Positions 24,375 through 34,896 of a stretch of DNA of 39,138 bases are shown one piece after another. Made by a program: the position numbers and the translations under genes. Position 1 is the first letter of the stretch. Each line of letters starts with the position of its first letter. The stretch is from Clostridia bacterium (GTDB lineage: Bacteria; Bacillota; Clostridia; Oscillospirales; CAG-272), in contig JAGBCA010000040.1 in the NCBI GenBank assembly GCA_017938205.1, forward strand, positions 1-39,138. Direction: 5' to 3'. Under the pieces are notes generated by a model. The model worked only from the letters and a program-made list of their open reading frames with translations. It was not told where the DNA came from and made no database searches.

Positions 24375-25259
24375 ATGCTTTTAACCAACGGAATTTCGCC
24401 GATGTCGCACCGCTTCGGCCTCTACCGCGCCATTGAGCTTTGCTGCGAGGCAGGCTTTCGCTCGCTCGATATTGATTTTTGTGATGTAAAAACGCCGCTT
24501 CTTTCAGAGAACAATCGGCAGGCCATTGCGGAGGTGAAGAGCCGCCTTGCGCATTACGGTGCGATCGCGCATCAGGCGCACGCACCCTTCCCGATCGGCA
24601 AGGATGCCTACCGCATCCCCGAGGAAAACATAGACGAGCTGCTTCGCCGCACGCTGGAGGCTTGCGGTGAACTCGGCGTTTCGCAGGTGATCTTCCACCC
24701 CCTTCGCGCCTATGATACCACCGCGGAGGAGCGTATCGAAGCCAACCGCAAAGCGCTTGCTCCCTACGGCGCATACGCAAAGAAATGCGGCGTTAAGATC
24801 GCGGTGGAAAACCTCTTCTGCCAGCACAAGGAAAACAAGAAGAAGCTCACCGCCAACGCCTGCTCCACGGGCGCAGAGCTTGCTGCCACGGTGGATGCTC
24901 TGGGGGATGGCTTCGTTGCCTGCCTCGACGTTGGGCATTCGGGACTCGCGGGGCAATCGGCGGCCGAGATGATCCGTATTCTCGGAAAAAACCGCCTTCA
25001 CGCTCTGCACGTGCACGACAACGATTACTTCTCGGATCTGCACCTGCCGCCCTATTTCGGAGAGATGGATTGGGATTCGATCATCGAGGCGCTCGCCGAG
25101 ATCGGCTATAACGACAGCTTCACCTTTGAGATCGTCGGCAAGCCTCTGACCTCTCTGCCGGATTCGCTCATTCCCTCGGGACTTCGCTTCTGCTACGACA
25201 TCGGCATGGACTTCGTAAATAAGATCGAAGCAAGAAAAAAAGAGCTCGGAACTTTGTAA
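24375..25259 (+). CDS. Sugar phosphate isomerase/epimerase, TIM barrel (first of tandem pair)
   Basis: A 294-residue member of the xylose-isomerase-like TIM-barrel family (AP endonuclease 2 superfamily). Metal-site landmarks are HAPF after strand two, VENLF with the first Glu, CLDVGHSGL, ALHVHDNDYFSDLHLPP and FTFEIVG with the last Glu. Family members act as inosose dehydratases, hydroxypyruvate isomerases or ketose 3-epimerases; this one cannot be assigned. It starts 17 bases after the XRE gene and ends 18 bases before a paralogue. Confidence 0.88.
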   Translation: MLLTNGISPMSHRFGLYRAIELCCEAGFRSLDIDFCDVKTPLLSENNRQAIAEVKSRLAHYGAIAHQAHAPFPIGKDAYRIPEENIDELLRRTLEACGELGVSQVIFHPLRAYDTTAEERIEANRKALAPYGAYAKKCGVKIAVENLFCQHKENKKKLTANACSTGAELAATVDALGDGFVACLDVGHSGLAGQSAAEMIRILGKNRLHALHVHDNDYFSDLHLPPYFGEMDWDSIIEALAEIGYNDSFTFEIVGKPLTSLPDSLIPSGLRFCYDIGMDFVNKIEARKKELGTL

Positions 25260-25277: not shown

Positions 25278-26153
25278 ATGCTTTTAACCATCAATTCAAA
25301 CTTCTTCCGCCCCTTCGGCATCCTCGGAGAGATCGAGAGATCCATCGAGGCGGGCTTCCGCTCCATTGATTTAAACCTCTGCCTCTACAAGGAGAACGTG
25401 CTCTATTTTTCCGAAAAGGATCATTACGTAAGGGAGATCAAGGCGCGCCTTGCAAACGGCGGCGCGGCGATCCATCAGACACACGCCCCCTTCCCCTCTT
25501 ACAGAGAAGGGGAGGACGACTACAACAAGCTCTTGAAGGAGCGCACCCTGCAGGCGATCGAGGTCTCCGCGGAGCTCGGCGCAAAGCAGGTGATCGTGCA
25601 TCCCATCTGGTTCAGAAACGACACCCCGGCCGTGCAGATGGAAAAAAACCTCGCACTCTACGAGCCCTACGGCAAGCGTGCCAAGGAATGCGGCATCAAG
25701 ATCGCGATCGAGAATATGTGGGGCTATATGCGTGACTGCTCCGACAAGATCTGCGCCAACGTGTGCTCCACAGCCGAGGAGCTTTGCGCCTATGCGGATG
25801 CGCTTGGCGAGCAATACACCGTTTGCCTCGACGTTGGCCACGCGGGGCTGACAGGCGAAATTGCGGACAGAATGGTGCGCGTGCTCGGCAAAAAGAGGCT
25901 CGGCGCGCTCCATATCCACGACAACGATTTTTATCACGACAGCCACACCGCCCCCTTCTACGGCAAGATGAACTGGGATGCGCTCACAAGCGCCCTCGCA
26001 GACATCGACTATAACGAGAGCTTCACCTTCGAGGTGGAGGGTGCCTTCTGGCCGCCCGTCAACGAGCTGCGTGTTCCCGCCGCAAAATATCTCTATGAAA
26101 TCGGCGCATATCTCGTCCGCGAGATCGAGAGAAAAAAGCAGAAGCTTCTGTAA
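25278..26153 (+). CDS. Sugar phosphate isomerase/epimerase, TIM barrel (second of tandem pair)
   Basis: A 291-residue paralogue of the preceding gene, arising by tandem duplication. The same metal-site blocks are present: HAPFPSY, IENMWGYM, CLDVGHAGLTG, LHIHDNDFYHDSHTAPF and FTFEVEG. Differences near the substrate side (MWGYMRDC against LFCQHKEN) suggest the two have different substrates. Keeping both in one operon with an SDR and a flavin reductase-like protein points to a multistep sugar or polyol conversion. AAAGGAG precedes the ATG. The repeat element at 26156 begins three bases after its stop. Confidence 0.88.
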   Translation: MLLTINSNFFRPFGILGEIERSIEAGFRSIDLNLCLYKENVLYFSEKDHYVREIKARLANGGAAIHQTHAPFPSYREGEDDYNKLLKERTLQAIEVSAELGAKQVIVHPIWFRNDTPAVQMEKNLALYEPYGKRAKECGIKIAIENMWGYMRDCSDKICANVCSTAEELCAYADALGEQYTVCLDVGHAGLTGEIADRMVRVLGKKRLGALHIHDNDFYHDSHTAPFYGKMNWDALTSALADIDYNESFTFEVEGAFWPPVNELRVPAAKYLYEIGAYLVREIERKKQKLL

Positions 26154-26529: not shown

Positions 26530-27540
26530 TTATTTTGTATTCAATACGCGGCGAATCATAAAGTCCACGTTCTCACACACGTTTTGCACGGTCAGATGAA
26601 TCTCGGGATTGCTCCTCTGCCAAACAACGAAGAGCTCATGCACAAAGGCTTGGCCAACCTCCTCCGTACCCGCAAAATCCAGCTCAACCTCTCTGAAGCC
26701 GGAAATTACCTCTCCGAGTCTTCTTGCCTCGGAGCGAGAAATGGGGTCCCCGTTCGGAAAGAAATGCGCAATCGGGATCGCAGTCCTCACAAATCCCTCC
26801 TCCACGTTTGAAAAACGGTCAAACACCTCGCGTGCGGTTTTTTTGCTACTGTTATATAGCGTCATCGCAACCAGCGTTCCGCCTGTTTTTTGAAGCGTCG
26901 AAAACAATTCGTCGTGAAAATTATCACGCGTAAAACGCACGTTATCCGAAACGATCAGAAAATCGTCCATCATATGCGAGGTGAAAAAGATTCCTTCGCC
27001 GGAATGCAGGCTCTTTGCGGTTGTAAATTTTCCTGCAAACAAAAGCGCCGCGCACTCATCGATCGGCAGATCCTCACCGGACTCCTTCATCACGTATTCA
27101 CGGATATTTTGGAAAATACCCACGCCGTCATCCTCGATCAGAAGGGTGGTTTTCACCGTATCCACACGCACCGTGAGGTAAATATTTTCCGATCGGGAAT
27201 GCTCAATGGCATTGTTCATCATTTCCATAAAAGCATACCGCCAGACCGAGATCACGTTTTTGGGAAACGCACGGATCAGCGGCTCAAAATCCGCCGAGCA
27301 GATGCGGCTCTCCGAAAGTGTACCGCCGTTTTTATATGCAAAACGATATTCCTTATAAGTTAGGGTAAAATCCTCCCCGTTTTTCGTAATATATCCATCC
27401 TCCAGCAGCTCGGAAAGGTAATTGTAAACGGTGGATCTCGCTTTACCGAAGGAATCCATTGTTTTTTTGACCAGCGCCTTATCTTTTACGCTGATCAAAC
27501 GAAGCATGTATTGCTTTACCTGTTCTTTTTCGGTTTTCAT
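26530..27540 (-). CDS. Winged-helix + HATPase_c + STAS-like DUF4325 protein
   Basis: A 336-residue cytoplasmic protein with three parts. Residues 1-65 form a winged helix (ALVKKTMDSFGKARSTVYNYLS and LLEDGYIT), residues 95-235 a GHKL ATPase with N-box EMMNNAIEHS, G1 box IEDDGVGIF and G2-like SGEGIFFTS, and residues 255-336 a STAS-like DUF4325 domain (DFAGTEEVGQAFVHELF). No phospho-accepting histidine or sensor is present, so it is not a normal histidine kinase. It may be an ATP-dependent transcription regulator resembling anti-sigma/anti-anti-sigma parts joined in one chain. The ATG at 27540 is 7 bases after AGGAGG; the GTG at 27546 is too close. Confidence 0.85.
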   Translation of the reverse strand: MKTEKEQVKQYMLRLISVKDKALVKKTMDSFGKARSTVYNYLSELLEDGYITKNGEDFTLTYKEYRFAYKNGGTLSESRICSADFEPLIRAFPKNVISVWRYAFMEMMNNAIEHSRSENIYLTVRVDTVKTTLLIEDDGVGIFQNIREYVMKESGEDLPIDECAALLFAGKFTTAKSLHSGEGIFFTSHMMDDFLIVSDNVRFTRDNFHDELFSTLQKTGGTLVAMTLYNSSKKTAREVFDRFSNVEEGFVRTAIPIAHFFPNGDPISRSEARRLGEVISGFREVELDFAGTEEVGQAFVHELFVVWQRSNPEIHLTVQNVCENVDFMIRRVLNTK

Positions 27541-27561
27541 TTTCACCCCTCCTTTTCTATT

Positions 27562-27590
27562 ATTTTATCATTCTTTTCCAAAAAAATCAA
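27562..27590 (-). promoter_or_regulatory. Promoter of the HATPase/STAS-like gene
   Basis: On the minus strand TTGATT (27585-27590), 17 bases, TAAAAT (27562-27567). The ATG follows 21 bases downstream with AAAGGAGG between. Confidence 0.7.
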
Positions 27591-27628
27591 GTCTTATTCT
27601 AAAAATTCAAAATTTATGATCCATTTCT

Positions 27629-30193
27629 TTATTTCTTACCGTTTAAAAATTCCTCTAATGCAACCGCGGCAGAAGCAAGCTCCTTTTCAAACTCGCGCAC
27701 ACTGACGCGCAGGGCGCCGTGCCCGAGGATCACGAACTGCTCATCCTTATCCGAGCTGACCACGCGCACGCGGTATTGCTCCGCCATATGGTAGGTGGTT
27801 TTCTCAATAAAGGTATCGGCGGTCTGCTTTTCCTTGGTGTAGACCACCGTGACGGGGCCGATCTGCTCCTCGCTTCCAAGCCCTTCCTTGCGCCGATAGG
27901 CATCAAAAACGATCAGCGCACGGCATTTTTTCGTCGCAGCAAGATTGCAGACCGTGCGGATGAGGGCATCTCTTGCATCCCCGATGTCCGCCTCTGCCAT
28001 TTTCTTAAGCGCAGGCATGGCAAAGATCACGTTATAGCCGTCCAGCACGAGGTATTCCTCCTTGGGCGGCTCTGCCTTTCGGGGCTTTTTCTTTTGCTCC
28101 GAGGGCGCGGCATTGACCTTTTTCTCCGAAACGGTGCGCGGCTTGATCTTTCCGTAGGTGCGCTCAAAGATCGCAACCCACTCCTTCTCGGAAACATTCT
28201 CCTGCTTTTTGGGAATAAAGACCTTAGCCTCGGCTTCTTCGGGCGCATCCTCCGCGCCGTAGCCCGTCGGCAGATGCATCATATCCTTGGCCTCGTACCA
28301 GGGAACGGCGTAGCCGCTGCCCGCCTTGCAGAACACCGAATCGGCAGTGTGCCGCTCGTCAAGATCGGGATCGTACCCTCTCGCAGAGATGACCTCCTCG
28401 GGGTTATGGCAGGGCGCGTACGGACCAACCGCAAGCGAGATCTTTCCCGCTCCCTTGGTGTAGGCGCGCAGGGTCGTCGGATAGGAGCGCAGGCAGACCA
28501 CAGGCGCGTTGCCGATCAGCACCGTCACACCGCCCTCGCTCGTGTGGCTCGTAACCGTGCCGCCCATCGTGGCAATATCCGTCAGCGCGCGGCCGACCGA
28601 TGCATCGGGCAGCTCCATCGTAAAATCAAAGGTCGGCTCCAAGATCACGCCCTCGGCCGAGCGGATGCCCTGGCGCACGGCGCGATAGGTTGCCTGGCGA
28701 AAATCTCCGCCCTGCGTGTGCTTCAGATGCGCCTTGCCGCGGATCAATGTGATGCGCACGTCCGTTAAGGGTGCGCCGAGAAGCGCCCCGCGATGCGCGC
28801 GCTCTTCAATGTGCGTTAAGATCAGGCGTTGCCAGGAGAGCGAAAGCGCATCCGTCTGGCAATCCGAGCCGCAAACGATCCCCGAGCCGACGGGAAGCGG
28901 CTCGATCAGAAGATGCACCTCGGCATAGTGGCGAAGCGGCTCAAAATGTCCGTAGCCCATCACGGGCTCTGCCACCGTTTCGCGGTACAACACCGTTCCC
29001 TCGTCAAAGCCGACCGAAAGCCCGAACCGCTCCTCGATCAGCGTTTTCAATACCTCCAGCTGGATCTCGCCCATCAGCCGCACGCGGATGCGCCCGGCCT
29101 CGTTATCGTAATGCAGATCCAAGGCGGGATCCTCCTCCGCAAGCGTGCGGATGCGCGCAAAGGCATCCACGGCACTCACGCCCTCAGGCAAAAGCATACA
29201 GTAATCGAGCACGGGTGTCAGCACGCTTTCTGCGCCTGCCTCTACGCCAAGTCCCATGCCTGCCATCAGCGCGCGCGTGCCGTAGAGCGCAACCATCGCC
29301 CCTGCCGCGGCCTCCTTGACGGGCTTTGACCTTTCGGCGGAAAATACGCGGATCTCCTCGATCTTTTCTCGCACCTCGCCCTCCGAGGTACGAACGGTGA
29401 TCTCCTCCTTCGGGCGCAGACTGCCGCCCGTGATCTTGGCAAAGGCGATGCGCCGCCCATCCGCATCTCTCGTGATCTTAAACACCCTTGCACCAAAGAT
29501 GGTTTCGGAATAGGGTGTTTCGATCGTATAGGCATCGATGCATGAAAGCAACGCATCTACACCTTGGTTCTTCAGCGCAGAGCCGAAAAGGCAGGGAAAC
29601 ACACGGCAGCGCTTGATCGCACGCGCGATCTCTTCCTTTCCGAGCCTGCCGCCCTCAAAATATTTTTCCATCAGGGCGGTATCGTGCGTGGCAACGTCCT
29701 CATAGAAGGAGTCGCTCTCGTCCGCCGTAAAATCCACGCAAGCAAGGGAAAGATGTGTGCGCAGATTTTCGATCATTTCGGCTCTTCTGCCGTCAAAAAG
29801 ATCACATTTGTTTACAAAAATGAAGGTTGGAATGCCTCTTTTGCGAAGAAGCTGCCATAAAGTTTTCGTATGCGGACGAACGCCCTCCGCGGCACTTACC
29901 ACCAAAACCGCATAGTCCTGCACCCAGAGCGTGCGCTCGGTCTCGCAGGAAAAGTCTACGTGCCCCGGGGTATCGAGCAGGGTGATCGCCGTGTCCTTAT
30001 ACTCCATCGTTGCCTGCGAGGAAAAGATGGTGATGCCGCGTTTTTTCTCCAAAGCGTGCGTATCCATAAAGGAATCTCCGCGGTCCACGCGCCCGAGCAC
30101 CTTCGTGATGCCTGCCGTATACAGCATGGCCTCGGAAAGCGTGGTCTTCCCCGCATCCACGTGCGCAAGAATACCGAGAACGATCCGTTTCAT
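27629..30193 (-). CDS. TetM/EF-G-like translational GTPase fused to a YacP/Rae1-type NYN nuclease
   Basis: An 854-residue fusion. Residues 1-640 follow the ribosomal-protection/EF-G layout: G1 AHVDAGKTT (10-18), G2 RGITI (52-56), G3 DTPGH (74-78), G4 NKCD (128-131), GSALKNQG, then domains II to V. A charged Lys/Glu/Pro linker (about 640-710) leads to an NYN domain (712-854) with LVLDGYN (Asp718), VFDAYR (Asp764), ADTFIE (Asp793) and SSDKDEQ (Asp815, Asp817), the acidic set of YacP. YacP/Rae1 of Bacillus subtilis cleaves mRNA in the ribosomal A site, so a ribosome-directed nuclease is the best hypothesis. Tetracycline resistance is not implied. The ATG at 30193 has AGAGGGGGTG upstream. Confidence 0.9.
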   Translation of the reverse strand: MKRIVLGILAHVDAGKTTLSEAMLYTAGITKVLGRVDRGDSFMDTHALEKKRGITIFSSQATMEYKDTAITLLDTPGHVDFSCETERTLWVQDYAVLVVSAAEGVRPHTKTLWQLLRKRGIPTFIFVNKCDLFDGRRAEMIENLRTHLSLACVDFTADESDSFYEDVATHDTALMEKYFEGGRLGKEEIARAIKRCRVFPCLFGSALKNQGVDALLSCIDAYTIETPYSETIFGARVFKITRDADGRRIAFAKITGGSLRPKEEITVRTSEGEVREKIEEIRVFSAERSKPVKEAAAGAMVALYGTRALMAGMGLGVEAGAESVLTPVLDYCMLLPEGVSAVDAFARIRTLAEEDPALDLHYDNEAGRIRVRLMGEIQLEVLKTLIEERFGLSVGFDEGTVLYRETVAEPVMGYGHFEPLRHYAEVHLLIEPLPVGSGIVCGSDCQTDALSLSWQRLILTHIEERAHRGALLGAPLTDVRITLIRGKAHLKHTQGGDFRQATYRAVRQGIRSAEGVILEPTFDFTMELPDASVGRALTDIATMGGTVTSHTSEGGVTVLIGNAPVVCLRSYPTTLRAYTKGAGKISLAVGPYAPCHNPEEVISARGYDPDLDERHTADSVFCKAGSGYAVPWYEAKDMMHLPTGYGAEDAPEEAEAKVFIPKKQENVSEKEWVAIFERTYGKIKPRTVSEKKVNAAPSEQKKKPRKAEPPKEEYLVLDGYNVIFAMPALKKMAEADIGDARDALIRTVCNLAATKKCRALIVFDAYRRKEGLGSEEQIGPVTVVYTKEKQTADTFIEKTTYHMAEQYRVRVVSSDKDEQFVILGHGALRVSVREFEKELASAAVALEEFLNGKK

Positions 30194-30231
30194 TTGCGAC
30201 ACCCCCTCTTTCTTTGCAGATTGTTTTTTAT

Positions 30232-30260
30232 AGTGTATCACATCGGAGAAAAAAAGTCAA
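30232..30260 (-). promoter_or_regulatory. Promoter of the GTPase-NYN gene
   Basis: On the minus strand TTGACT (30255-30260), 17 bases, TACACT (30232-30237). The ATG is 38 bases downstream. Confidence 0.7.
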
Positions 30261-30368
30261 TGTGCCTTCATTTTGTGTTTTTGTGCGCTTGCACGGTTCA
30301 CAAAACAAATTACCGTTTGCCCGCACGGTGCAGATAATAAAACAGTAGGAAAACAAACGAAAAATCCC

Positions 30369-30397
30369 TTGCAGTTTCTAAATACTTGTGCTATACT
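30369..30397 (+). promoter_or_regulatory. Promoter of the glycan-degradation cluster
   Basis: TTGCAG (30369-30374), 17 bases, TATACT (30392-30397), with an extended -10 TG at 30389-30390. The stretch TGTGCTATACT resembles TGTGCTACAAT at the GH4 promoter (13554-13564). AGGAG and the ATG follow. Confidence 0.75.
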
Positions 30398-30429
30398 TAA
30401 AGAAAAGCAAAATATAGGAGACGGTCTTT

Positions 30430-33400
30430 ATGAAAAAAAGCTATTGGATCTATAACGCGGGTGACTACGAGATCTATCACACCAATCTCGTCAACGCAAG
30501 GCGCCAGGAATTTGGGGTGGATTACCCCGTAGTCTGGAAGGTTTACGGCGTTGAGCCCAAGGTGGATTTTCATGCGGACGTTTATGCAGAGGAGGACACC
30601 ACCTTCGTTTTGCATCTTGAAGGAAAGGGCTACGTTTTCGTGGATTTCTTTGAAAAAGAATTCGCGGATGGCGCAATGTTAGACGTTGCAGATCAGGATG
30701 CACCGCCCGACAAGCGCTACCGTCCCGGCGTGCGCGTGCCGCTTTCCAAGGGCGAGCACCATCTGCACATTTGTTGCTTAAATCTAACAGGTCTTCCCGC
30801 CGCCTATATTGAAAGCGAGCACATTGTTTCGGACGGCTCGTTTTATACGGTTGGCCCGGCAGGCGAGCATATCCCCGTTGGCTTTAGCGAAATGCATGAC
30901 AGCCTCGAAAAGATCCCCTCGCGCTTTCTTTTCTCCTACGAAAGAAAATACCCCGTTTCCAAGGAAACGCGAAACGGCGGCACGCTCTTTGATTTCGGCA
31001 AGGAGCTCTACGGCTACCTTTACGTCAAGAATGTTTCGGCAGACGATGCGCTCCACGTCAGCTACGGCGAATCCATGGAGGAGGCCTTGGACGTAAAGCA
31101 CTCCATCGTTTGGGAAGAGGTTTCGGGAAAGAGCGAATATAAGCTCACGGGACGTGCCTTCCGCTATATTTTCATCACGGGGGCAAACGATCCTGCCGTG
31201 GAGGCGGACTACGAATACTTAGATCTTCCCTATCGCGGCTCTTTTTGCTGTGATGACGAGGCAGTCAACCGCATTTACGATATGTGCCGCTACACCCTGC
31301 ATCTCAATACGCGCGAGGTGCAAACCGAGGCGATCAAGCGCGATCGCTGGCTCTGGGGCGGCGATGCCTATCAGGGCTTCAAATTTCACGCGTATCTTTT
31401 TCACGAGCCGGACCTCGTGCGCCGCTCGCTGATCGGTATGCGCGGCAAGGACCCCGTCACCGAGCATATCAACACCATTGCGGACTACAGCCTTTATTTC
31501 ATTCTCGGAACGCTCGAATATTACGAAACCTACGGCGATCTTGATTTTATCCGCTTTATCTATCCGCGCTGCAAAACGCTGATGGACTTCTGCACCTCGC
31601 GCGAGGACGAGGACGGCTTCTTCGTGAAAAAGCTGGACGATTGGATCTTCGTGGACTGGGCAAACATCGACAAGGACGGTCCTGTCTGCGCCGAGCAGAT
31701 GCTCTATATCGCATCCCTGCGCGCCATGGCAAAAATGGCCGCGCTGATCGGACGGGACAGCAAGGAATACGCGCAAAAGGCGGAAAGGCTCATCACGCTG
31801 ACAAACGAGCGCTTCTGGTGCGAGAAAAAGGGCGCTTATATTTCATCCTTCACCTCCGGGCGCGAGCAGGTCACTCGCCATGCCAACATCCACGCAATTC
31901 TCTTCGGCATTGCAGATGAAAAGCAGACCGCCGCGATCATAAAGAACGTTCTCGAAAATGATGCGGTTCCCCCGATCACGACTCCCTTCTTCGGCGGCTT
32001 TGAGCTGGACGCCATGGCAAGGATCGGCCGCACCGATCTTGTAGAAAATCGTATCCGTACATATTGGAAGGGAATGCTCGACCTCGGTGCAACCACCGTC
32101 TGGGAGGAATACAATCCCGAATTTTCGGGTACCAAGCACTACGAAATGTATAACCACAAATACGGAAAATCCCTCTGCCATGCATGGGGAGCCTCCCCGA
32201 TCTATCTGCTTGGCCGTTACTTCCTCGGCGTTGCCCCGACGGACACGGCCTACAAGACCTTTGAGGTGCGGCCGCATCTTGGCGGCTTCGGCTTTATCGA
32301 GGGCACCGTTCCCGTCGGGGAGGGCGAGGTGCGCGTATATCTTTCGAAGGAGGTCCTGCGCGTATGCGCGACCAAGGAGGGCGGCACGCTGATCTACGGC
32401 GAAAAAACGCTTGCACTCCCCAAAAACGAAACTATAGAGATCAAATTGCAAACAATTGTTTTAAAAAGCAAACCTATCCAAGAAAGGTCAAGAAAAATGA
32501 AAATTTTTGCAGAGAAACTTCTCACCCCCTCCTATTTTACATACGTGGAGGACGAAACGCCCCTCGCACCCGACTCTGTCACAGCCGCGGGCGGCTATCA
32601 CTTTGCCTGGATGACTGCGTTTGACGTTGGCGTTGACGTGCATTTTGATCCCATCCCCAAGGCCTACATCGGCGCGATCTCGGTAAAATTCTCCGCTCCC
32701 GCCGTATCGGGTGTGGAGGTGCTCGTTGACGGCAAGACCGCAGGCTGCTATTTCGGAGAAAGCGGCTATCGGGTTGGCTCTGTTGCCGGCGAAAACACCA
32801 ATCTGATCGAAAAGGCAGAGATCACCGTGCCCGTCGGCGCATACGGCAGTGAGATCCTTCTGCGCCTGCACGGCGCAATGCAGGCGATCGATATTGAAAA
32901 GATCGAGCTCCTCGGTGCATCCCTTGATGACGAGCCTACGCTCTGGCCCGCCCCGAAAAGGGTCACCTTCCTTGGTGAAAATAAGCGCATCGCGGCCGTG
33001 AGTGCAAAGGGCGGCGCAGAGGCGGAATTTGCCGCCGATTTCTTTAAAGAAACGCTCGCCGAATGCTCCCCCCTGCCGCTTTGTGACTGCGGCATCACCG
33101 TTTGCTTTGAAGAGACCGCCGATCCCGCCTACGAGGGCGAGCGCTACACGATCGACTATAAGGACGGAACGCTGACCGTCACCGCCGCCGAGCGGCTCAC
33201 GCTTCTCTACGGTGCGGACACGCTAAGACAGGCGCTGAATGCCGAGGGGATTGCCCTTCTTTCGGTGGACGACAAGCCCACCTGTGCCTTCCGCGGCTTC
33301 CACCTCGGACTTCCGCACCTTGATTATTTTGAATTTGCCGAGAGATTTTTCCGCTACGTGCTTCTGCCTCTGCGCTACAACTCGATCATCGTTGAATTTG

Positions 33401-34896
33401 CGGGCGGTATGCACTTTGACAAGCACCCGGAGATTTTGGAGGCATGGCTGGAGGATCAGCGCCTGCGCGAGGCAGGAGAGATCATTGCCGCTCCCATCCA
33501 CAACGAAATGGGCGCGCGCGGCACGGTGCTCGAAAAGGCGGACGTGGCAAGATACCTTGCCTCTGCAAGAAAATACGGCCTCGACGTGATCCCCGAGGTG
33601 CAGTCGCTCTCACACGTACAGTATCTGACCGCCGCGCATCCCGAATTCGGAGAATATGACGCAGCACCTGCGAAGGAGATCGACACGCGCGGCGAGGACG
33701 AGCGCCCTGCCGAAACCGTTGCGCATTGCTATTGCCCCTCCTGCGAGGGCGTTTACGAGGTGATGTTTGACATCATTGACGAGATCGTGGAGGTCGCAAA
33801 GCCGAAGAAATACGTGCACCTCGGTCACGACGAGGTGTATCAGCTCGGCGTTTGCGAAAAATGCAAGGAGAAAACCCCTGCTGAGCTTTACTATTCCGAT
33901 CTGATGAAGCTCTACGGGCATCTGAAGGAAAAGGGACTGACCGCTATGATCTGGTCGGATATGCTCCATCCCGCCCCCACCACGCATTACGCCTGCGAGA
34001 GCGTGCGCGAAAGAATGCCCAAGGACATCGTGTATCTTGACTTCATCTGGTATTTCCACGTAGACAAGGACATTGAGGACGAGCTTTTGCCCTACGGCAA
34101 TCCCCTCATGATCGGAAACCTTTATTCCTCGCACTTCACGCGCTACAGAAGCCGCATGATGAAGCCGGGCGTGATCGGCGGCGAATGCTCCACCTGGGTA
34201 GCCGTTGGCGAGGAGGAATTTGGTGACAACGGCAAAATTTTCGACGTTGCCTACCTCTCCGAAATGCTCTGGAATCCCGAAAATTACGAGGAGAAGAACC
34301 GCCGCGCCTACACGGAGCTGATCGCAAAGCACGTGCTTCCCTATCTTAGATGCGGCCTGCACGGTGCGTTTGCGTCTGGAGGCTACGATAAAAAGGCGCT
34401 TACGCTTTCGGGCAAGAAGCCCGCGCTTCCCGCCGTTCTCTCCGAGGCGCGCCCCGAGGCGATCCTTGCCGAGGACTTTGCCTTTGACGGCTCTGCCACC
34501 TGCGACCGCCTGCTCCTTGAGCTGACGCTTTTACACCCGATGCGCCGCATCGTTTGGAAGGATCTGCCGCATCTCGGCTCTTACACCGTCACCTACGAGG
34601 ACGGAACGCAGAGCGAGATCGAGCTTCGCTACGGCAGAAACGTGATGGAGCTTTGCCACACCTACGGCATGCCGAAGCCTACGCAGTATTTCCGCCACAA
34701 CGGCTACGTCGGCACCTATTTCTCGGATCCGAAGGCGATCGGCAAAACCGATTGCGGCGAGGATCTGACGCTTCTCGTTTACCCCTGGGATAATCCCTGC
34801 CCCGAGAAAAAGATCACAAAGATCGCCTACAAAGCAGTCAACGAAAACGTTCACCCCATTCTCACGAATGCCGAGATTTTAACAAAAACAAAGTAA
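30430..34896 (+). CDS. GH78 alpha-L-rhamnosidase / GH20 hexosaminidase in one reading frame
   Basis: One uninterrupted frame of 1488 residues. Residues 1-670 are GH78-like: an N-terminal beta-sandwich, then the (alpha/alpha)6 barrel with AIKRDRWLWGGDAYQ, LDDWIFVDW, GATTVWEEY and SLCHAWGASPIYLLGRYFLG. Residues 690-1488 are a complete GH20 protein with TIM barrel and the catalytic pair Asp1134-Glu1135 in LGHDEVY; nearby cysteines (CYCPSC and CEKC) may bind zinc. The linker (about 674-689) reads like a translated intergenic spacer and contains an internal Shine-Dalgarno and ATG690. Products would remove rhamnose and N-acetylhexosamine from intracellular oligosaccharides. No signal peptide. Either a true bifunctional protein or two products arise. 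Confidence 0.88.
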   Translation: MKKSYWIYNAGDYEIYHTNLVNARRQEFGVDYPVVWKVYGVEPKVDFHADVYAEEDTTFVLHLEGKGYVFVDFFEKEFADGAMLDVADQDAPPDKRYRPGVRVPLSKGEHHLHICCLNLTGLPAAYIESEHIVSDGSFYTVGPAGEHIPVGFSEMHDSLEKIPSRFLFSYERKYPVSKETRNGGTLFDFGKELYGYLYVKNVSADDALHVSYGESMEEALDVKHSIVWEEVSGKSEYKLTGRAFRYIFITGANDPAVEADYEYLDLPYRGSFCCDDEAVNRIYDMCRYTLHLNTREVQTEAIKRDRWLWGGDAYQGFKFHAYLFHEPDLVRRSLIGMRGKDPVTEHINTIADYSLYFILGTLEYYETYGDLDFIRFIYPRCKTLMDFCTSREDEDGFFVKKLDDWIFVDWANIDKDGPVCAEQMLYIASLRAMAKMAALIGRDSKEYAQKAERLITLTNERFWCEKKGAYISSFTSGREQVTRHANIHAILFGIADEKQTAAIIKNVLENDAVPPITTPFFGGFELDAMARIGRTDLVENRIRTYWKGMLDLGATTVWEEYNPEFSGTKHYEMYNHKYGKSLCHAWGASPIYLLGRYFLGVAPTDTAYKTFEVRPHLGGFGFIEGTVPVGEGEVRVYLSKEVLRVCATKEGGTLIYGEKTLALPKNETIEIKLQTIVLKSKPIQERSRKMKIFAEKLLTPSYFTYVEDETPLAPDSVTAAGGYHFAWMTAFDVGVDVHFDPIPKAYIGAISVKFSAPAVSGVEVLVDGKTAGCYFGESGYRVGSVAGENTNLIEKAEITVPVGAYGSEILLRLHGAMQAIDIEKIELLGASLDDEPTLWPAPKRVTFLGENKRIAAVSAKGGAEAEFAADFFKETLAECSPLPLCDCGITVCFEETADPAYEGERYTIDYKDGTLTVTAAERLTLLYGADTLRQALNAEGIALLSVDDKPTCAFRGFHLGLPHLDYFEFAERFFRYVLLPLRYNSIIVEFAGGMHFDKHPEILEAWLEDQRLREAGEIIAAPIHNEMGARGTVLEKADVARYLASARKYGLDVIPEVQSLSHVQYLTAAHPEFGEYDAAPAKEIDTRGEDERPAETVAHCYCPSCEGVYEVMFDIIDEIVEVAKPKKYVHLGHDEVYQLGVCEKCKEKTPAELYYSDLMKLYGHLKEKGLTAMIWSDMLHPAPTTHYACESVRERMPKDIVYLDFIWYFHVDKDIEDELLPYGNPLMIGNLYSSHFTRYRSRMMKPGVIGGECSTWVAVGEEEFGDNGKIFDVAYLSEMLWNPENYEEKNRRAYTELIAKHVLPYLRCGLHGAFASGGYDKKALTLSGKKPALPAVLSEARPEAILAEDFAFDGSATCDRLLLELTLLHPMRRIVWKDLPHLGSYTVTYEDGTQSEIELRYGRNVMELCHTYGMPKPTQYFRHNGYVGTYFSDPKAIGKTDCGEDLTLLVYPWDNPCPEKKITKIAYKAVNENVHPILTNAEILTKTK
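32446..32463 (+). repeat. Copy of motif TGCAAACAATTGTTT at the GH78-GH20 junction
   Basis: TTGCAAACAATTGTTTTA includes the 12-base perfect palindrome AAACAATTGTTT. It lies in the translated linker, exactly where a spacer between two genes would be. Confidence 0.6.
32483..32499 (+). promoter_or_regulatory. Internal ribosome binding site and ATG for the GH20 half
   Basis: AAAGG (32483-32487) lies 9 bases before ATG 32497-32499 (Met690), which begins the first recognisable residues of the GH20 protein, MKIFAEKLL. A separate 799-residue GH20 product (32497-34896) is therefore plausible. Confidence 0.5.

What the first reader, a model, noticed from the sequence alone, without database searches (positions are those of the whole stretch)
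27629..30193. Translational GTPase fused to a Rae1/YacP-type ribosome nuclease
The sequence shows an EF-G/TetM-like GTPase with all G motifs, a charged linker and a C-terminal NYN domain that keeps the acidic residues of YacP. YacP (Rae1) in Bacillus subtilis is a ribosome-associated nuclease that cleaves mRNA in the A site, and TetM-type factors bind the A site region of stalled or drug-bound ribosomes. A single chain could dock on ribosomes, clear or remodel the A site by GTP hydrolysis and cut the mRNA. Automatic annotation as tetracycline resistance would hide this. The proposed joint mechanism is inference.
Basis: partly seen in the sequence, partly recalled or inferred. Interest (0 to 1): 0.78.

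Follow-up and report, generated by a model that had tools for sequence, protein, structure and literature searches.

The report
EF-G-like GTPase fused to mRNA-cutting domain
This bacterial gene joins an EF-G-like ribosome factor to a ribosome-linked RNA-cutting domain; such fusions were reported in 2015, this one looks like a family of its own rather than a tetracycline-resistance gene, and it seems to stand in for the separate cutting-enzyme gene, but its activity is untested.

Summary
Pfam finds a GTPase, EF-G domains II-V and NYN_YacP (715-847, 135.7 bits). Five nuclease acids are identical in 102 of 102 complete fusions read (101 distinct).

The architecture is not new: Atkinson 2015 (PMC4342817, passages read) reported Tet proteins of ten clostridial species with a YacP-like NYN domain and suggested a resistance role.

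My data argue against calling it Tet: 420.8 bits against a 775-bit cut-off, outside the sampled Tet clade, and Lys491 where TetM has the drug-clashing Pro509. His489 aligns with the EF-G tip histidine.

Fused and separate yacP hardly co-occur: of 247 genomes read in a class sample, 128 are fused, 108 separate, one has both, 12 unclear. In 117 genomes of the window's order, 32 of 33 NYN domains are fused and one is cut by a contig end. Here the gene after rlmB is not yacP.

Best reading, inferred: a GTPase-delivered Rae1 that cuts mRNA on stalled ribosomes. Docking may have moved to the GTPase, as a C-terminal motif of free YacP (33 of 45) is mostly missing in fusions (4 of 102 match). No structure could be modelled; nothing is assayed.

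The parts
27629..30193 (-). whole gene, 854 aa, trGTPase-NYN fusion (ATG at 30193)
30232..30260 (-). promoter-like site TTGACT-17-TACACT with TG before the second hexamer; would give a 5' leader of roughly 30 nt
   Evidence: (consensus match, 9 of 12; 6 such sites found in 27400-30500, shuffle mean 1.7)
30201..30210 (-). Shine-Dalgarno-like AAGAGGGGGT, 7 nt before ATG
   Evidence: read by eye
29525..30184 (-). GTPase domain, residues 4-223, all G motifs
29258..29491 (-). EF-G domain II, residues 235-312
29009..29155 (-). EF-G domain III, residues 347-395
28655..28999 (-). EF-G domain IV, residues 399-513
28697..28738 (-). domain IV tip loop, residues 486-499 GKAHLKHTQGGDFR; H489 aligns with the E. 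coli EF-G tip His, K491 with TetM Pro509
28403..28645 (-). EF-G domain V, residues 517-597
28274..28402 (-). family-specific C-terminal element, residues 598-640, shared with unfused relatives, which end at or soon after it
28055..28273 (-). linker, residues 641-713
28142..28189 (-). conserved element in the linker, residues 669-684 EKEWVAIFERTYGKIK
27653..28051 (-). NYN_YacP nuclease domain, residues 715-847
28040..28042 (-). Asp718 (aligns with YacP D7)
27902..27904 (-). Asp764 (aligns with YacP D53)
27815..27817 (-). Asp793 (aligns with YacP D81)
27803..27805 (-). Glu797 (aligns with YacP E85)
27749..27751 (-). Asp815 (aligns with YacP D104)

Best explanation
A ribosome-delivered Rae1: the EF-G-like GTPase half binds ribosomes whose A site is open or stalled, puts its domain IV tip into the decoding region, hydrolyses GTP and withdraws, and the NYN half, on a linker of about 75 residues, then cuts the mRNA in or near the vacated A site. 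Shown: the architecture, intact G motifs, invariant nuclease acids, a fusion clade, and near-exclusive occurrence with free yacP. Inferred: ribosome binding, A-site cutting, the order of steps (both parts are unlikely to fit in one A site together), and that the GTPase takes over docking that the missing YacP C-terminal motif may have served.
For: Ten G-motif positions and the five NYN acids are kept in 102 of 102 fusions read (101 distinct), except that one has Thr for the NKxD Asn. Class sample: of 247 genomes read, 128 fused, 108 standalone, 1 both, 12 unclear; 35 'both' expected if independent (relatedness not corrected). Families f26, f27, f31, f32 and f54 hold both states in different genomes and no genome read there has both; f58 holds the one exception, G330. 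G059, in a genus whose other six members in the sample are fused, has no GTPase of this family at E 1e-60 and a standalone YacP that groups with the extra one of G330, which looks like replacement of one form by the other. In this genome rlmB is followed by a 901-aa gene without a Pfam match, not by yacP as in L197-L199. B. subtilis Rae1 is described as acting in, or proposed to enter, the ribosomal A site (PMC6613710, PMC10100781; passages). The C-terminal pattern L/F/M/I-E/D-x-x-R-R/K is in 33 of 45 free YacPs and 4 of 102 fusions; R166P in the C-terminal part of B. subtilis Rae1 is listed among loss-of-function suppressors.
Against: Domain IV and a Rae1 domain would compete for one A site. 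14 of the 15 unfused relatives in the tree lie outside the fusion clade and 14 of 15 keep the tip His, and 15 of 80 searched genomes with separate yacP carry both genes apart, so the two halves can exist unjoined. Exclusivity partly reflects clade membership. The gene is dispensable: 33 of 117 genomes of the order have the domain, and of six genomes of the window's own family in that sample only the window's has it, while one other has the unfused GTPase.
Confidence: 0.5

Rival explanations
1. Two separate jobs in one chain: the GTPase is an EF-G-like translation helper and the NYN half is an ordinary Rae1; fusion only couples their amounts or gives weak local concentration.
For: In 15 of 80 searched genomes (79 with standalone yacP, 1 unclear) the same GTPase family occurs unfused. 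The linker is long and varies (73-134 residues from H640 to D718 in 74 proteins). L. salivarius lies inside the fusion clade without the NYN domain.
Against: Near-absence of the C-terminal YacP motif in fusions and the conserved linker element suggest adaptation to the fused state.
Confidence: 0.2
2. Ribosomal RNA or tRNA processing or quality control: the GTPase presents ribosomal subunits or tRNA and the NYN half trims or destroys RNA other than mRNA.
For: Anantharaman and Aravind's proposal for this domain, as cited in PMC4342817; free yacP sits beside rlmB, an rRNA methylase gene, in L197-L199.
Against: The studied YacP, Rae1, is reported as a translation-dependent nuclease that destabilises mRNA.
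Confidence: 0.15
3. Tetracycline or other drug protection with an added RNase, the suggestion of Atkinson 2015.
For: TetM is the best solved relative; database products are named tetracycline resistance; published suggestion.
Against: 420.8 bits against the 775-bit cut-off that Tet(M) passes with 878. Separate from a clade of six Tet/OtrA-type proteins, 100/98 and 100/99 support. Pro509 of TetM is Lys in 101 of 102 fusions (role of Pro509 from PMC7456112, passages). Only 2 of 1304 plasmid records with a match cover at least 80% of the protein. A predicted short leader leaves no room for a tet(M)-like leader peptide (consensus promoter only).
Confidence: 0.1
4. A phage-defence or toxin-like device that cuts RNA when the ribosome is disturbed by infection.
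For: A nuclease joined to a sensor-like GTPase; two unannotated faecal 'Bacteriophage sp.' records carry full-length relatives.
Against: No PADLOC match; no neighbour cluster touches more than 12 loci among the surroundings of 129 genes; broad distribution.
Confidence: 0.03

Closest known systems
Clostridial Tet-NYN fusions of Atkinson 2015 (PMC4342817)
   Same: trGTPase of the EF2 family with a C-terminal YacP-like NYN domain in Clostridia (passages read)
   Different: Reported there in ten species and filed under Tet; here fused frames are in 128 of 247 genomes read of a class sample and the sampled fusions lie outside the Tet clade. The paper's list of proteins (Additional file 8) was not read, so identity of the two sets is likely, not checked.
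Rae1/YacP of Bacillus subtilis (PDB 5mq8, 5mq9)
   Same: NYN_YacP domain and the five acidic residues
   Different: Joined to a GTPase, mostly lacks the C-terminal motif, not beside rlmB
Tet(M)/Tet(O) ribosome protection proteins
   Same: EF-G-like domains I-V in the same order, best PDB match
   Different: No Pro509-type tip, no passing Tet score, separate clade, shorter G4-G5 stretch (74 against 89 residues)
EF-G
   Same: Domain order and a His at the domain IV tip
   Different: 273.4 bits against the 659.4-bit EF-G cut-off; G4-G5 stretch 74 against 122-123 residues; the genome has a second, more distant EF-G-like gene, probably its EF-G

Membership tests
Tet ribosomal protection proteins | NCBIfam Tet score over the curated cut-off | tested here: not met
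   420.8 against 775 bits; control Tet(M) 878
Tet ribosomal protection proteins | Lies inside the Tet/OtrA clade | tested here: not met
   Searches (3 Tet rows; 6 Tet rows): Tet one clade, this family another
Tet ribosomal protection proteins | TetM-type tip of domain IV (Pro509, Val510) | tested here: not met
   K491, H492
Tet ribosomal protection proteins | Confers tetracycline resistance | not testable with these tools
   needs susceptibility tests
EF-G | NCBIfam EF-G score over the cut-off | tested here: not met
   273.4 against 659.4 bits
trGTPase superfamily, EF2 family | G1-G5 motifs and domains II-V in order | tested here: met
Rae1/YacP nucleases | NYN_YacP domain over cut-off | tested here: met
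   135.7 against 24.6 bits
Rae1/YacP nucleases | Conserved acidic residues | tested here: met
   102 of 102 fusions, 101 distinct; alignment to 5mq9
Rae1/YacP nucleases | C-terminal motif of most free YacPs (not known to be defining) | tested here: not met
   33 of 45 free, 4 of 102 fused; window tail is 40 residues from D815
Rae1/YacP nucleases | Ribosome-dependent mRNA cleavage | not testable with these tools
   needs biochemistry
Atkinson 2015 trGTPase-NYN fusions | EF2-family GTPase followed by NYN_YacP in Clostridia | tested here: met
Known anti-phage systems | PADLOC model match | tested here: not met
   0 families

The most novel reading that the evidence does not exclude
A GTP-gated mRNA-cutting ribosome rescue factor: a translational GTPase subfamily outside EF-G and Tet that times the entry of a tethered Rae1 nuclease into the A site, and that has taken the place of free Rae1 in much of the Clostridia.
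Probability: 0.35. Interest if true: 0.78.

Novelty: new member of a known kind. Interest (0 to 1): 0.5.

Why it matters
How Rae1 chooses its ribosomes is open as far as I know (recalled; not searched as such). A widespread natural fusion that nearly always excludes free Rae1 ties that nuclease to a known class of A-site factor and gives a direct experiment. It also suggests that naming these genes tetracycline resistance in genome annotation is misleading and could inflate resistance counts.

Tried and rejected
Tet membership: rejected on score, tree and tip loop. Frameshift or assembly chimaera: rejected by 100 other distinct complete fusions. Operon partners: in the surroundings of 129 genes (102 fusions, the rest unfused, Tet and EF-G rows, some of them repeats) the widest neighbour cluster touches 12 loci in mixed positions. 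RNA leader: no Rfam hit in the window, terminator-like sites at chance level (4 found, shuffle mean 4.1). Phage or viral spread: no relative confirmed in viral contigs with the window protein alone; two unannotated phage records match over the full length, not followed. Strict single origin of the fused NYN: the tree mixes in two free NYNs (L024, L200); one clade is not rejected (p-AU 0.309), so neither domain release nor a pre-fusion ancestor is settled. Structure: prediction switched off, so the reach of the NYN domain was not tested. Leroy 2017, Condon 2018 and three Tet papers are not held; I do not know whether Condon 2018, on Rae1 distribution, mentions the fusion. Print searches bearing on the fusion; only PMC4342817 was seen to describe it. 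The other hits were seen as listings, apart from passages of PMC6613710, PMC10100781 and PMC11780869.

Full report
What is there. Window 27629-30193, minus strand, encodes 854 aa with GTPase and EF-G domains II-V (4-597) and a NYN_YacP domain (715-847). The start has a Shine-Dalgarno-like stretch and a promoter-like site close upstream, leaving a leader of about 30 nt (consensus match only). The G motifs are complete. The NYN part aligns with the solved YacP structures 5mq8 and 5mq9 (E 4.7e-19) with all five acidic positions kept.

How general it is. With 20 stretches, six, two plasmid-collection records and the window this makes 102 complete fusions. One search shows 101 distinct sequences: L118 and L168 are the same protein, and L048 and L144 are 99% identical. 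D718, D764, D793, E797 and D815 are identical in all.

Exclusion with free yacP. Class sample: 391 genomes, 249 with a match, 248 over the cut-off. Frame lengths were read for 247 of these (G346 missed): 128 with a frame of 780 aa or more, 108 with 220 aa or less, one with both (G330), 12 in between. Frame length alone was used here; the fusion was confirmed by sequence only in the complete set above. 35 would be expected with both if independent; relatedness is not corrected for. One short frame, G224, belongs to a genus whose other listed members have long frames and may be a broken or cut copy. In the window's order 33 of 117 genomes have the domain; 32 are fused and the last, G482, is cut by the contig end. 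In a phylum sample, 133 of 249 genomes are over the cut-off; by frame length I count 16 fused and none with both (some of these genomes are also in the class sample). The window's genome is 84% complete and has one NYN_YacP match, this one. Against a core role near the window: of six genomes of its own family in the order sample, the other five lack the domain and one of them has an unfused GTPase.

Where free yacP lives. In L197, L198 and L199 it lies between rlmB (SpoU methylase) and a sigma-70-family gene, probably sigH; in the window's genome rlmB is followed by a 901-aa gene without a Pfam match.

The GTPase without the nuclease. A profile of domains III-V (A3, E 1e-60) finds the family in 38 of 117 genomes of the order: 32 fused, and 6 with unfused frames (634-660 aa) that lack NYN. 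Of 80 genomes with separate yacP (79 of the 108 standalone and one of the 12 unclear), 15 carry it, all with frames of 652-729 aa. Of 80 of the 142 genomes without a NYN match, 7 carry it, two of these with short frames of 605 and 293 aa, at least the first at a contig end, so that a lost NYN cannot be excluded there. Unfused proteins end at or soon after the conserved H640, where the linker begins.

Trees. EF-G (2 rows), Tet/OtrA-type (3, then 6 rows) and this family are three separate groups. All 49 sampled fusions fall together with one unfused protein, from L. salivarius, which probably lost its NYN domain; that fork has 92/96 support and 100/97 (16 fusions). The other unfused proteins (14, 11) form the sister group, with 95/77 and 94/83. 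The NYN tree puts 42 of 43 fused and 1 of 45 free domains on one side, with only 83/81 support; with one more free domain added, 43 fused and 2 free (L024, L200) group at 100/96, and a clade of fused alone is not rejected (p-AU 0.309). Both genomes with these two free domains (G243, G262) also carry an unfused GTPase. They may be relics of the state before fusion, or released domains.

Not Tet. Score 420.8 against 775 bits, with Tet(M) as control at 878. The tip loop is GKAHLKHTQGGDFR; TetM Pro509, which clashes with tetracycline (PMC7456112, passages), is Lys in 101 of 102 fusions and 14 of 15 unfused, while the EF-G tip His is kept in 100 of 102 and 14 of 15. Only 2 of 1304 plasmid records with a match cover at least 80% of the protein.

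What changed in the nuclease. Most free YacPs end in a pattern L/F/M/I-E/D-x-x-R-R/K (33 of 45; the 12 that fail include related forms). 4 of 102 fusions match: L118 and L168 are one protein, and L059 matches outside the true tail, so the real number is smaller still. R166P in B. subtilis Rae1 is listed among loss-of-function suppressors (PMC6613710, passages); that R166 falls in this motif is my count from the 5mq8 alignment, not a stated fact. I infer that the GTPase half took over a docking role.

Mechanism. [quoted passage not shown] EF-G-like domain IV goes to the same place (TetM). Both are unlikely to be there at once, so I propose an order: GTPase docking, GTP hydrolysis and withdrawal, then NYN entry on the tether. 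The linker (73-134 residues from H640 to D718 in 74 proteins) is long enough in principle, but no model was made. This remains inference.

Prior art. Atkinson 2015 stated that Tet proteins of ten clostridial species gained a YacP-like NYN domain and proposed a test of RNase ability. The present contribution is the separation from Tet, the breadth of the fusion, the near-exclusion with free yacP, and the changed nuclease tail. No functional study was seen in the searches named in Tried and rejected.

Noticed in passing
window 30430-34896 +: A 1488-aa protein with an alpha-L-rhamnosidase-type region (270-596) followed by glycosyl hydrolase family 20 regions (836-948 and 1028-1183): two glycosidases in one chain.
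   Followed up: partly
window 26530-27546 -: About 80 bp downstream of the fusion on the same strand: a 338-aa protein with a histidine-kinase-like ATPase region (just over the Pfam cut-off for one model, just under for another) and DUF4325; not seen as a shared neighbour.
   Followed up: partly
L140 4001-5920 (Ligilactobacillus salivarius plasmid): Unfused relative inside the fusion clade, beside an rpsN gene; the tip His is Ser.
   Followed up: partly
phage records MT835563.1 5421-8018 and MT835514.1 15276-17798: Full-length fusions (47.1% and 43.5% identity) in unannotated faecal 'Bacteriophage sp.' records; may be host DNA mislabelled or phage-borne copies.
   Followed up: no
L024 1483-2004 and L200 2166-2681: Free NYN domains that group with the fused type; L200 lies beside a sigma-factor gene and keeps the C-terminal motif, as expected of a pre-fusion state.
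   Followed up: partly
G330 (L047, L179) and G059 (L178): G330 has both fused and free forms; G059 has only a free form, related to that of G330, in a genus of fusion carriers.
   Followed up: partly
window 24375-25259 + and 25278-26153 +: Two adjacent xylose-isomerase-like TIM-barrel genes, perhaps a tandem duplication.
   Followed up: no
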